24,100 bases of DNA, from IMG/VR virus record IMGVR_UViG_3300024475_000002, positions 1 to 24,100 of that record; one strand, given 5' to 3'. This DNA comes from a virus. This document shows positions 4,190 through 12,796 of the stretch, piece after piece. Both the position numbers and the translations under genes were made by a program. Numbering within the stretch: position 1 is the first letter of the stretch; each line of letters begins with the position of its first letter. The notes beneath the pieces are model-generated. The model did no database searches. It was not told the DNA's origin and worked only from the letters and a program-made list of their open reading frames with translations.

Positions 4190-4423
4190 TTAGTTGCAGG
4201 TAGTATTACCCCAAGCATCAGTGCGACAGTTCACTGTATTGCCTCTGTTATCTGTCGTTGATGTGTTGCCCCAAGCATCTGTTCTTGTTGTTGAATTATA
4301 ACCTGAGTCATCACCTGTTCCATAGCATGTGGTATTACCCCACGCATCTGTTCTGCAGGTTACACCAGCTTGTAATGGCATCGAAAACATGATGATAGTT
4401 GAGATTAATAGTAAGCTTTTCAT
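4190..4423 (-). CDS. Secreted protein with TDAWGNT repeats
   Basis: A 77-residue protein. Residues 1-19 form a signal peptide: Lys2, a hydrophobic core (LLLISTIIMFSMP) and LQA before Gly20. The rest is three copies of a RTDAWGNT unit (about 23-33, 47-55, 66-76) plus a weaker one (TDNRGNT, 57-63). The first and last copies are flanked by cysteines (C23/C33 and C66/C76), so small disulphide loops in the periplasm are likely. AAGGAG lies upstream of ATG 4423. Similar short TDAFGNT-type secreted repeat proteins occur in phages and bacteria, with no function known to me. Export to the cell envelope suggests a role at the host surface, such as exclusion or lysis timing, but that is a guess. Confidence 0.7.
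   Translation of the reverse strand: MKSLLLISTIIMFSMPLQAGVTCRTDAWGNTTCYGTGDDSGYNSTTRTDAWGNTSTTDNRGNTVNCRTDAWGNTTCN
4203..4355. repeat. Three imperfect direct repeats encoding RTDAWGNT
   Basis: On the plus strand, ATTACCCCAAGCATC-like units lie near 4203-4226, 4263-4286 and 4332-4355, spaced 60 and 69 bases. They are in the coding frame of the secreted protein and encode its repeated units. Third-base differences between the copies (for example ATTACC versus GTTGCC) show that they are not fresh duplications. Confidence 0.75.
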
Positions 4424-4876: not shown

Positions 4877-4907
4877 AAAAAAAGCCCCGATGCCGAAGCA
4901 CCGAGGC
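4877..4907 (-). terminator. Factor-independent terminator after the gene at 4928-5341
   Basis: On the minus strand a ten-pair stem (GCCTCGGTGC / GCATCGGGGC, two G-U pairs) closes a TTCG tetraloop and is followed by seven Ts. It sits twenty bases after the stop of the leftward gene at 4928. It would separate that transcript from the left-arm operon, which has its own promoter. Confidence 0.85.
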
Positions 4908-4927: not shown

Positions 4928-5341
4928 CTACTTAGCACCTTTCATAGCTTTGTATTTAGCTTCCAATCTGTCAATAGATCCAGCGACTGCCTTGCTATCG
5001 GCGTGTACCTTTGGAAAGAGTTGCTCCGAAGCTGTCTGGAAGTAATGCTCAAGATCGTCATTGACTTTGATCTGATGCTGATTCCATTCGATGTCGTTTT
5101 GAAGCTGTAAGATTCTGTCATTATCTAGCACGACACCGTGTTCTTTGTGTTCGATGTAGAGATTTAGACATTCTTCTTCCATGCTCTGTATTTTCTCCAA
5201 CTTGTTATTTGTGTTCCACTTGATATCCTTGATGATCTTGTTAGTGAAATACTGTAATGTTGAATTTGTAGTCCTGTCTGAAAGAGCAAAGAGCTTTGTG
5301 ATGTCTTTAGCGAAAGAGTTAGTGTGTACTTGCTTTGTCAT
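4928..5341 (-). CDS. Hypothetical helical protein (137 residues)
   Basis: ATG 5341 is chosen because GGAG lies six bases upstream; longer in-frame readings would run into the structured block to the right. The protein is highly charged and mainly helical (LEKIQSMEEECLNLYIEHKEHG, then ILQLQNDIEWNQHQIKVNDDLEHYF), with no cysteine pairs or membrane segment, and ends in a basic RLEAKYKAMKGAK. Coiled-coil assembly is likely. It forms a transcript of its own, with a terminator after it and the structured block at 5369-5577 before it, perhaps as its leader. I do not recognise a family. Confidence 0.6.
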   Translation of the reverse strand: MTKQVHTNSFAKDITKLFALSDRTTNSTLQYFTNKIIKDIKWNTNNKLEKIQSMEEECLNLYIEHKEHGVVLDNDRILQLQNDIEWNQHQIKVNDDLEHYFQTASEQLFPKVHADSKAVAGSIDRLEAKYKAMKGAK

Positions 5342-5368
5342 AGTTGACTCCATTTGAAACTGACGAGG

Positions 5369-5577
5369 AACTGCCCTCGCCTTATGCCCCGTCCGAAAGC
5401 ACGGCCTGACACCTACGGCGCGAGACAGCCCTGCTGGGCTGGTGAAGCGTCCAAGTATAGTCCAGCCACGGCGAGACGGATATGAACCAGTAGAAACAGC
5501 CATTGGCAGGGTGCGGCCTGCGACTATACTTGGATGACAGGTTGTGCTTCGGATAATGGGGCTTGGCGAGGACAGTT
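5369..5577. ncRNA. Candidate structured RNA of about 210 bases
   Basis: A nested set of long complementary segments. The outer stem is 5369-5381 with 5565-5577 (13 positions; one is C/A on plus, G-U on minus). GCCCC 5386-5390 pairs with 5558-5562. Bases 5391-5402 pair with 5544-5554 (one bulge). Inside, a perfect 13-pair stem joins 5450-5462 (TCCAAGTATAGTC) with 5522-5534. Local hairpins occur at 5426-5441 (CAGCCC, TGCT loop) and 5506-5521 (GCAGG/CCTGC). By my count about 59% of bases are G or C, clearly more than in the flanking genes. No protein frame fits it. It does not match RNase P RNA, tmRNA or tRNA by eye. The strand is not settled: on minus it would be the leader of the 4928-5341 gene, on plus a leader of the late genes or a free RNA. 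A nested inverted-repeat DNA element is the alternative. Confidence 0.6.
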
Positions 5578-5755
5578 GCTTGACAGGTCAAATGGTGTCA
5601 ACGGAGACACAGTAAGGACGCACTGGCTCTGTAGGTAAAGACGTGAGCAAAGAGCTTTGGGCTTTCAGATAGGTCTGTTGTCGTGGTTGTCGTTTTGTGC
5701 GTTGACAAGATGTTTAGAAAGGTATGAAAGTGGGGGGGAACACAAGGGGGGGCAG
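5578..5755 (+). promoter_or_regulatory. Intergenic control region before the late genes
   Basis: No gene is visible here. Half-sites of TTGAC type occur at 5580-5584 and, reversed, at 5587-5591 and 5597-5601, with another at 5702-5706. A tandem nine-base repeat (GTTGTCGTG, GTTGTCGTT) lies at 5677-5694. A small hairpin GTGTC/GACAC lies at 5597-5612. A weak rightward promoter could be TTGACA (5702-5707) with TATGAA (5723-5728), but the 15-base spacing is short. Two runs of seven Gs (5732-5738, 5746-5752) precede the small terminase gene, the second acting as its ribosome-binding site. Confidence 0.35.
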
Positions 5756-6127
5756 ATGACAAGTGTAGTTAAGCTAACCGATAAACAGACTGCTTTGGTG
5801 GATACATTAGTAGCAAGAGGCTGTACCATAAAAGATGCCGCTGAGATTGCTGGATACGCTAAGGGTGATGCAGGTAGAGTGACAGCACAGAAGACTCTCA
5901 AGCTCCCGCATGTGCAGGCGTACATGATGCAAGCGATAGGTGAGCAGTTAGGCGTAAGTGCTACCCTTGCCGCGGCTCGGCTTGTATCCTTATCTGGTGG
6001 TGCCAAGAGTGAGTACGTTCAGCTAGAAGCTAGCAAGGATATCTTGGACAGAGCTGGCTTCAAGGCACCAGATAAGCACATGCACCTACATGCTGGCGAA
6101 ATTAAGGTGTCTATAGACCTTGGATAA
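5756..6127 (+). CDS. terS: Terminase small subunit-like protein
   Basis: A 123-residue protein with an N-terminal HTH (about 7-50): LTDKQTALVDTLVARGCTIKDAAEIAGYAKGDAGRVTAQKTLKLPHVQAYM, as in small terminase subunits that recognise phage DNA for packaging. The segment after it (SEYVQLEASKDILDRAGFKAPDK) is also usual for these proteins before a short variable end. It is the first gene of the rightward late block and lies upstream of the large terminase, although eight genes separate them. ATG 5756 follows a GGGGGGGCAG ribosome-binding site; a longer in-frame reading would add 33 residues without support. A different HTH role cannot be excluded. Confidence 0.7.
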   Translation: MTSVVKLTDKQTALVDTLVARGCTIKDAAEIAGYAKGDAGRVTAQKTLKLPHVQAYMMQAIGEQLGVSATLAAARLVSLSGGAKSEYVQLEASKDILDRAGFKAPDKHMHLHAGEIKVSIDLG

Positions 6128-11819: not shown

Positions 11820-12072
11820 CGCATACTTAGGACTTGATGGCTATCAGCGTAAGAAAGAAGAAGATGTAAAGATTAGCTTAAACCTAGCTAGTCTTTTCAG
11901 TACTGATACTGGTGCAGAAGTATTACGCTATCTAAGATCAATCACAATAGAACAGGTTCATGGTGCAGGGGTTTCCGATGCGGAACTGCGCCATATGGAA
12001 GGACAGCGATATATCGTTGGCCTCATTGAGTCACGCATCCGTCACGCACATAGGGCAAAAAACGATGAATGA
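11803..12072 (+). CDS. Bbp19-like small phage protein
   Basis: An 89-residue protein starting at TTG 11803 inside the end of the portal gene, with GAGGA eight bases upstream. It contains YLGLDGYQRKKEEDVKISLN, STDTGAEVLRYLRSITIEQV and ELRHMEGQRYIVGLIESRI. The last part matches the GQR..V..I pattern of the Bbp19 family, found between portal and scaffold genes in many podoviruses. Its function is unknown. The stop overlaps the scaffold start. Confidence 0.7.
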   Translation: MGRNNNAYLGLDGYQRKKEEDVKISLNLASLFSTDTGAEVLRYLRSITIEQVHGAGVSDAELRHMEGQRYIVGLIESRIRHAHRAKNDE

Positions 12073-12796
12073 AGAAGCGCAAGTAGAAGCACCACAGGAA
12101 AGTGATGTTGTTACTGAGGGCGGCGATCCGTTATTGCAAACGGAATCCGAGCGTCCTGAGTGGTTGCCAGAAAAGTTTAAGACAGCAGAAGATCTGGCTA
12201 CAGCATACTCCTCACTAGAAGGCAAGCTAGGTCAGAAGGACGAGGAAGCTAGAGAAGCTTGGATGAAAGAAATCCAAGAAGAAGCATTTGCCAATCGTCC
12301 AGCAGAAGTAGGTGACTATCAGTTGCCAGAGGGATTTGATGAAACTCAGGCAGAGGGCAATGAGTTGCTTAACTGGTGGGCCAATCAATCATATGAAAAC
12401 GGCTACAGCCAAGAGGAGTTCCAAGAAGGCATACAGATGTACATGGATGCTTTGAACGCTGATGTTCCTGACTTTGAAGCTGAGACTGCAAGGCTAGGTG
12501 ACAATGCTTCGGCAAGAACAGAAGCGGCTAGCCTGTTTGCTAATCAGTTCTTTCCAGAAGAACACATCGGCGCGATTGAGCGTATGTGCGAAACTGCCGA
12601 TGGCATCATGGCTCTTGAGCATATCATGGAACAGATAAAGCAATCTGGTCCTGCTTATGATGCAGAAACAGCTATGCAAACAAATGAAGCTGAGTTAAAA
12701 GCTATGATGTTAGATCCCCGCTATCATGATCCTGCTAGGCGCGACCCTCACTTCGTCAGCCAGATAGAATCAGGTTTCAAGAAGATTTATGGCTAG
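12065..12796 (+). CDS. Scaffolding (capsid assembly) protein
   Basis: A 243-residue, very acidic, helical protein placed directly before the capsid genes, where T7 has gp9. Marks include RPEWLPEKFKTAEDLATAYSSLEGKLG near the start (a WLPEKF...E.L..AY..LE pattern common in podovirus scaffolds) and a C-terminal AELKAMMLDPRYHDPARRDPHFVSQI. It guides procapsid assembly and leaves before DNA fills the head. ATG 12065 lies in the end of the previous gene; no ribosome-binding site is clear, so translation is probably coupled. The stop overlaps the next start by eight bases. Confidence 0.85.
   Translation: MNEEAQVEAPQESDVVTEGGDPLLQTESERPEWLPEKFKTAEDLATAYSSLEGKLGQKDEEAREAWMKEIQEEAFANRPAEVGDYQLPEGFDETQAEGNELLNWWANQSYENGYSQEEFQEGIQMYMDALNADVPDFEAETARLGDNASARTEAASLFANQFFPEEHIGAIERMCETADGIMALEHIMEQIKQSGPAYDAETAMQTNEAELKAMMLDPRYHDPARRDPHFVSQIESGFKKIYG

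What the first reader, a model, noticed from the sequence alone, without database searches (positions are those of the whole stretch)
5369..5577. Undescribed-looking structured RNA of about 210 bases at the divergence point
The sequence shows nested long stems: 13 positions (5369-5381/5565-5577), five pairs (5386-5390/5558-5562), ten or eleven with one bulge (5391-5402/5544-5554), and a perfect 13-pair stem (5450-5462/5522-5534), plus two local hairpins. By my count about 59% of bases are G or C, against clearly less in nearby genes. It lies between a leftward gene and the rightward late genes and matches no RNA family I know (RNase P, tmRNA, tRNA and group I introns checked by eye). It could be a phage regulatory or counter-defence RNA, a leader for the 4928-5341 gene, or a nested inverted-repeat DNA element.
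Basis: partly seen in the sequence, partly recalled or inferred. Interest (0 to 1): 0.75.

Follow-up and report, generated by a model that had tools for sequence, protein, structure and literature searches.

The report
Giant rod-shaped phage RNA beside terminase
Phages related to a virus of the ocean bacterium Pelagibacter carry, just before a DNA-packaging gene, a stretch that appears to encode an undescribed rod-shaped RNA; one side of the rod is the reverse strand of a neighbouring gene, and paired mutations show that evolution keeps the rod, though its job is unknown.

Summary
The 210 bases are the top half of a 407-nt imperfect palindrome (5270-5676) that folds as one near-continuous rod with a three-way junction near the top (-219 kcal/mol on +; best of 57 other windows -135). 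No Rfam match. Relatives keep it in the same place and on the same strand, just upstream of the small terminase gene terS. In 13 aligned sequences 35 of 46 pairs show double compensatory changes. In the wider phage family, isolate Hodr included, 25 of 31 loci have a long hairpin there, arms 57-574 nt. The left arm takes in part or all of a divergent gene for a helical protein; where the whole gene is included, the right arm is its non-coding inverted copy. Mismatches favour G-U over A-C on the terS-direction strand (279 to 50), but the folding-energy strand difference lies outside local background in only 7 of 13 loci, and Hodr shows none. So a selected structure is near 0.9; an RNA on that strand about 0.75. 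No transcript data exist. I favour a cis-antisense regulatory RNA (0.36); a scaffold or packaging RNA is the main rival.

The parts
5270..5676 (+). whole rod-shaped RNA candidate (407-nt imperfect palindrome)
   Evidence: inverted arms with one centre; MFE -219.3 on + and -173.2 on -, best of 57 other 407-nt windows -134.7
5303..5357 (+). lower left arm; overlaps, antisense, the start of the leftward gene; pairs with 5588-5642
   Evidence: 76% complementary; 8 of 13 pairs of helix 1 of alignment A2 with double changes
5588..5642 (+). lower right arm, partner of 5303-5357
5426..5441 (+). side hairpin of the three-way junction (CAGCCC-TGCT-GGGCTG)
   Evidence: 7 of 8 pairs of helix 4 with double changes in 13 sequences
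5450..5462 (+). 5' strand of the 13-bp apical stem (partner 5522-5534)
   Evidence: 11 of 13 pairs with double changes, 99.4% of cells paired
5463..5471 (+). invariant apical motif CAGCCACGG
   Evidence: invariant in 13 of 13 sequences (7 of these were brought in by a pattern holding 8 of its 9 bases) and in 9 of 9 found without that pattern
5506..5521 (+). apical hairpin GCAGGGTGCGGCCTGC, one position variable
   Evidence: also in the pattern
5522..5534 (+). 3' strand of the 13-bp apical stem
4928..5341 (-). leftward gene, 137 aa, no Pfam or PHROG match; family predicted as a helical hairpin
   Evidence: AlphaFold2 of relative L029 with a 15-sequence alignment, mean pLDDT 86.4; pN/pS 0.13-0.35 in 11 pairs of homologues
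4884..4907 (-). intrinsic terminator after the leftward gene, outside the rod
   Evidence: 10-pair stem followed by seven T
5702..5728 (+). promoter-like TTGACA ... TATGAA (spacer 15) between rod and terS
   Evidence: TTGACA within 160 nt upstream of terS in 27 of 29 sequences
5732..5752 (+). double G-run element GGGGGGGAACACAAGGGGGGG
   Evidence: two runs of four or more G, 4-18 nt apart, in 26 of 29 sequences
5756..6127 (+). small terminase subunit terS
   Evidence: PF03592 27.9 bits, cut-off 26.1; phrog_2538 E 1.7e-9; searched as 5759-6127

Best explanation
The element is a structured RNA read in the terS (+) direction, about 400 nt here and about 240 to 1,170 nt in relatives: a rod with a covarying three-way junction and invariant apical motifs. 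Its 5' arm is by position the antisense strand of the leftward gene's start (in some relatives of the whole gene); its 3' arm folds back on that antisense arm and, where the whole gene is included, is a non-coding inverted copy of it. Most likely mechanism: cis-antisense control of the leftward helical-protein gene. When transcribed, the RNA can pair with that gene's ribosome-binding site and start codon, while rod formation limits how long the antisense arm stays open; the conserved top would dock a protein, possibly the leftward protein itself. Shown here: the structure, its conservation, its antisense overlap, an excess of G-U over A-C on this strand. Inferred: that it is transcribed, that it silences the gene, that a protein binds it.
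For: Covariation: A6, 13 sequences, 46 pairs, 92.9% of cells paired (shuffles 74.4%), 35 pairs with double changes (shuffles 18.1; slid controls 6-15); A2, 9 sequences, 83 pairs, 26 with double changes (shuffles 12.9; slid 2-6). Other branches: compensatory doubles exceed the maximum of 300 permutations in 12 of 16 contrasts, e.g. 46 against 10. Strand: GU 279 to AC 50 in 16 representatives; WC-GU single changes exceed WC-AC in 15 of 16 contrasts, which share sequences; + folds better in 15 of 16 and the difference exceeds every background window of the same contig in 7 of 13 loci. Four-fold sites have G/A below 1 in 9 of 11 window genes, so mutation bias does not predict the A-to-G half of the excess. 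Position: in 14 of the 16 loci L134-L149 terS was found, always downstream in the same direction. The leftward gene's start, or all of it, lies in the left arm in the clusters and in L025, L029, L040.
Against: No transcript has been seen. No conserved rightward promoter at the left end: median background rank 0.24 in 14 loci, suggestive at most. The folding-energy strand difference lies within background in 6 of 13 loci, and in the window itself at least one of 57 ordinary windows differs more (-52.3 against -46.1). Hodr shows no preference (GU 7, AC 9; -410.0 and -412.2). Under a null conditioned on mismatch composition the excess shrinks to 279 observed against 214 expected. Rods differ greatly in length and apical sequence between branches, and simple antisense control needs no second arm. 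Synonymous rates in the overlapped part of the gene are not consistently lowered.
Confidence: 0.36

Rival explanations
1. A structural or scaffold RNA acting in trans, for example an RNP with the leftward helical protein or an RNA that helps terS-dependent DNA packaging; overlap with the leftward gene is incidental.
For: Constant neighbourhood with terS and the leftward gene; invariant apical motifs; helix 5 keeps Watson-Crick pairs without one-sided change; a lengthened ROP helical hairpin is among the weak structural matches (rank 12, E 0.46, TM 0.89 by target).
Against: Helical hairpins match many proteins by chance; the best PDB E-value is 0.2. In some relatives the right arm follows the whole gene, which a scaffold does not need.
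Confidence: 0.25
2. A DNA element: a hairpin in single-stranded + DNA at a replication origin or packaging start site.
For: Sits at the divergence point next to terS; helix 5 is strictly Watson-Crick in 168 of 169 cells; G.T is also tolerated in DNA hairpins (recalled); strand preference is absent in Hodr and within background in 6 of 13 loci.
Against: A cruciform would be strand-symmetric, yet G-U exceeds A-C 279 to 50. Arms of 1.1 kb in all are far larger than origin or pac hairpins known to me.
Confidence: 0.16
3. The 5' leader of a long late transcript that reads through into terS and alters termination or translation (put-like, recalled).
For: Same strand and immediately upstream of terS.
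Against: A promoter-like TTGACA lies within 160 nt upstream of terS in 27 of 29 sequences, right of the rod in the window, so the main terS transcript would start after it.
Confidence: 0.11
4. A quasi-palindrome without function, its arms kept alike by template switching or conversion.
For: Double changes are clustered in 2 of 4 contrasts tested (P 0.009 each; 0.19 and 0.67 in the others); blocks of the right arm are present or absent between close relatives.
Against: Does not predict G-U over A-C, the invariant apical motifs or the covarying side hairpin.
Confidence: 0.07
5. A double-stranded RNA decoy against a host nuclease or RNA-sensing defence.
For: Great length of paired RNA; structured RNAs from terminase genes activate CBASS in staphylococci (PMC10686824; start of abstract and passages).
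Against: Not tested here; the staphylococcal RNA triggers a defence, it does not block one.
Confidence: 0.05

Closest known systems
Large structured RNAs GOLLD and ROOL (PMC12286853, start of abstract in a listing; phage link recalled)
   Same: long structured non-coding RNAs found by comparative genomics
   Different: no Rfam match of this element; this one is a single rod with one three-way junction and overlaps a gene in antisense
Phage and plasmid antisense RNAs (P4 CI RNA, P1/P7 C4, ColE1 RNA I with Rop), recalled
   Same: structured regulatory RNA beside or overlapping its target; Rop is a helical hairpin, as the leftward protein is predicted to be
   Different: those are short RNAs (recalled) without a second arm copying the target gene; no Rfam match here
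cabRNA of staphylococcal phages (PMC10686824, abstract start and passages)
   Same: about 400 nt in two phages, structured, from the terminase region
   Different: comes from within terS and terL; not a rod upstream of terS; cabRNAs of different phages share no sequence
Rod-like RNAs with a reading frame along one arm (hepatitis delta, Obelisks), recalled
   Same: imperfectly self-complementary rod of about 1 kb with one frame along one arm
   Different: here encoded in phage DNA at a fixed place and variable in length; no sign of RNA replication looked for or seen
Hairpin RNA loci born by inverted duplication of their target in plants, recalled
   Same: hairpin arms resemble the gene they could target
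   Different: bacterial virus; no Dicer or Argonaute pathway shown

Membership tests
Any Rfam 15 family | covariance-model score at or above gathering | tested here: not met
   0 matches in the window; 0 at E<=5 for 5300-5780
Structured non-coding RNA | compensatory pair changes beyond shuffled and slid controls | tested here: met
Structured non-coding RNA | one-strand preference | tested here: inconclusive
   for: GU 279 to AC 50, 15 of 16 fold better on +, 7 of 13 beyond background; against: Hodr, 6 of 13 within background, weaker excess under the conditional null
Structured non-coding RNA | transcript exists | not testable with these tools
   no RNA data at hand
cis-antisense RNA | overlaps a gene on the opposite strand including its start | tested here: met
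   5270-5341 lies in the gene 4928-5341 of the other strand
cis-antisense RNA | own promoter at its 5' end | tested here: inconclusive
   median background rank 0.24 in 14 loci
cis-antisense RNA | represses that gene | not testable with these tools
   needs an expression assay
phi29-type packaging RNA | match to its Rfam model (that Rfam holds one is recalled) | tested here: not met
   no Rfam match
retron ncRNA | adjacent reverse transcriptase | not tested
   no search with reverse transcriptase models was made
transposon or IS end | target duplication or transposase | not tested
   no dedicated search was made

The most novel reading that the evidence does not exclude
A new kind of phage genetic unit: a protein gene and its own non-coding inverted copy, kept in register by compensatory evolution so that the antisense strand forms an RNA rod up to 1.1 kb long, whose top carries a conserved functional domain and acts with the encoded helical protein.
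Probability: 0.28. Interest if true: 0.9.

Novelty: new variant of a known kind. Interest (0 to 1): 0.72.

Why it matters
If transcribed, this would be, to my knowledge, among the longest near-continuous RNA hairpins kept by selection in a phage, in relatives of a phage of SAR11, a group known for its abundance in the sea (recalled). A gene whose reverse strand is held to pair with a non-coding copy of itself is an unusual meeting of coding and structural constraint, and one infection RNA-seq experiment on isolate Hodr or a nearer relative would test it.

Tried and rejected
Known RNA families were rejected after Rfam searches at gathering scores and at E<=5; tRNA and tmRNA by ARAGORN. A leader for the leftward gene was rejected because the favoured strand is antisense to it. 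Mutation bias alone was considered for the G-U excess and judged insufficient from four-fold sites. A first self-complementarity scan used lenient scores that ran into random sequence and was replaced. The z-scores come from the best of many windows against mononucleotide shuffles and are not used. Structure search of the leftward protein family gave no PDB match at E<=0.001 and two uncharacterised phage proteins in BFVD at that level; PHROGs and Pfam gave none for the window's protein and weak ones, best E 0.005, for relatives. Promoter scans gave no conserved rightward start. A scan of genome contigs for the apical motif found 0; a near search of phage records with the window found 0, a distant one only terS of Hodr. 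Paper searches: searches found 0; one search found 2 and one search found 22 (12 listed), seen as listings only and none about this element by title or abstract start; one search found 4 for cabRNA, of which passages of one were read.

It showed that the folding-energy difference between strands lies within local background in 6 of 13 loci. It also showed that one search printed nothing for Hodr through my handling of the output: with the same scores the match is there (E 2.8e-24, 774 columns, 160 of them gaps).

Rows dropped: of 32 loci with enough sequence upstream of terS, one search left out L023 and L032 as near copies and added Hodr, giving 31. and one search used 16 of the 25 loci above threshold, leaving out L004, L012, L014, L020, L048, L058, L063, L064, L075 and the six below threshold. 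One search tested strand background in 13 of those 16 (not L001, L011, Hodr; the window has its own control); background windows were few (2 to 25 per locus). One search used 16 chosen pairs. One search covered the window and 88 of 133 loci. L020 was left out of A6 for its insertion, L012-L014 for weak similarity, and L098, L100, L101, L141, L142 as near copies. One search used 15 representatives, 14 scorable at the left end.

Full report
Observation. The element does not stop there: inverted arms 5303-5357/5588-5642 and 5270-5298/5648-5676 have the same centre. The 407 bases 5270-5676 fold as one near-continuous rod, -219.3 kcal/mol on + and -173.2 on -, while the best of 57 other 407-nt windows reaches -134.7 on its better strand. 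No Rfam family matches.

Setting. To the right lies terS (5756-6127), to the left a 137-aa leftward gene without Pfam or PHROG match followed by its own terminator. Capsid and head-tail connector genes mark a tailed phage. The nearest isolate by large terminase is Pelagibacter phage EXVC031P Hodr, 63.5% over 98% of the query. The window is an unnamed virus record of 24,100 bases.

Direct relatives. The conserved top, used as a pattern, gave 17 stretches in viral contigs, of which 9 are contigs not held before (compared). A covariance model from 8 sequences gave 14 matches in 89 sources: ten strong, which include the 8 it was built from, then L013, L012 and L014 (E 7.5e-8 to 2.5e-4) and L007 at E 0.15, not significant. 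In 14 of the 16 loci L134-L149 terS was found, each time downstream of the element and in its direction. In 13 sequences realigned without the model, 92.9% of pair cells form standard pairs (shuffled 74.4%), 35 of 46 pairs have double changes (shuffled mean 18.1, slid 6 to 15), and 0 of 500 shuffles reach any of the five measures. The 13-bp apical stem has double changes in 11 of 13 pairs with 99.4% of cells paired; the side hairpin in 7 of 8. CAGCCACGG is invariant in 13 of 13, with the caution that 7 of these came through a pattern holding 8 of its 9 bases; it is also invariant in the 9 sequences of A2 found without the pattern. A2 covers the longer region: 83 pairs, 26 with double changes against 12.9 in shuffles, with one of the five measures (further pair types) reached by 4 of 500 shuffles.

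Wider family. Of 31 loci examined upstream of terS (the window's copy, 29 contigs, Hodr), 25 have a hairpin scoring more than twice the best of six shuffles, with arms of 57 to 574 nt; L034, L044, L045, L050, L065 and L073 do not. In L025, L029 and L040 the left arm contains the whole leftward gene. The gene stands first leftward of terS in the ten loci whose frames I listed, 124 to 245 aa across the loci seen; for L044, L050 and L073 I judge it one family by place and by eye, and Hodr's copy is only 12% identical to L029's. It is under purifying selection in 11 of 11 comparisons (pN/pS 0.13 to 0.35) and predicted as a long helical hairpin. In those loci the right arm is a non-coding inverted copy: the longest + frames listed over it are 57 aa in L040, 56 in L029 and 85 in L025, and in L093 it still reads ITRNVTQT-stop where the gene reads MTRNVTST (translated by eye). 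Blocks of the right arm present in L093 and L087 are absent in L096 and L090-L092, and the top differs entirely between L093 and L094.

Selection and strand. In 16 pairwise contrasts compensatory double changes exceed the maximum of 300 permutations in 12; the other four differ at 7 or fewer positions per side. Clustering of the double changes, expected from conversion, is seen in 2 of 4 contrasts. Mismatches in 16 representatives are GU 279 and AC 50 on the terS-direction strand, while arm composition predicts a ratio near 1.4 (my arithmetic from the table). A stricter null conditioned on mismatch composition expects 214 and 46. The + strand folds better in 15 of 16. Controls temper this: ordinary windows of the window's record also lean to + (39 of 57, mean -8.2, extreme -52.3, against -46.1 for its rod), and on their own contigs 7 of 13 rods exceed every background window while 6 do not, with 2 to 25 background windows each. 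Hodr shows no preference. Four-fold sites have G/A below 1 in 9 of 11 window genes, so mutation pressure should not give the A-to-G half of the excess. I read this as selection on pairing (near 0.9), probably in a + strand RNA (about 0.75); single-stranded + DNA is not excluded.

Mechanism. No RNA data exist. TTGACA occurs within 160 nt upstream of terS in 27 of 29 sequences and two G-runs in 26 of 29 (first seen); in the window they stand between rod and terS, so the rod is probably not the usual terS leader. Promoter scores at the rod's left end are only suggestive. The favoured strand is antisense to the leftward gene including its start. I therefore favour a cis-antisense regulator with a folded top that may bind protein (0.36), then a trans-acting scaffold or packaging RNA (0.25).

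Novelty. Phage non-coding RNAs and antisense RNAs are known kinds. A rod formed by a gene's reverse strand and a maintained non-coding copy of it I did not find described; those searches cover only an open-licence library and exact terms.

Noticed in passing
window 5702-5752: Block before terS: TTGACA (27 of 29 sequences) and two G-runs (26 of 29). The paired G-runs, GGGGGGGAACACAAGGGGGGG here, might be a G-quadruplex or a protein site.
   Followed up: partly
L007 6690-6760; L012 1669; L013 1816; L020 622: A small palindromic module (CCCGCTTGCGCG...AAGCGCGGG, with variants) sits inside the rods; in L007 one copy lies nested in another. The core string occurs elsewhere in genes, but without the matching second half by eye.
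   Followed up: partly
L093 and L094, apex of the rod: The apical hairpin differs completely between two otherwise near-identical phages, on both arms at once, as if swapped as a cassette.
   Followed up: no
window 4190-4423, - strand: Small protein with a signal-like start and repeats of RTDAWGNT (ORF list).
   Followed up: no
window 4928-5341, - strand, and relatives: Leftward protein family: predicted long helical hairpin; weak match to a lengthened ROP variant (9cfs, E 0.46) and to two uncharacterised uncultured-phage proteins (E 8.2e-5 and 5.9e-4).
   Followed up: partly
L082 (Hodr) 11942-12635: 694-nt self-complementary stretch with many gaps that takes in the first 95 or so bases of terS (annotated start 12036), without strand preference.
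   Followed up: partly
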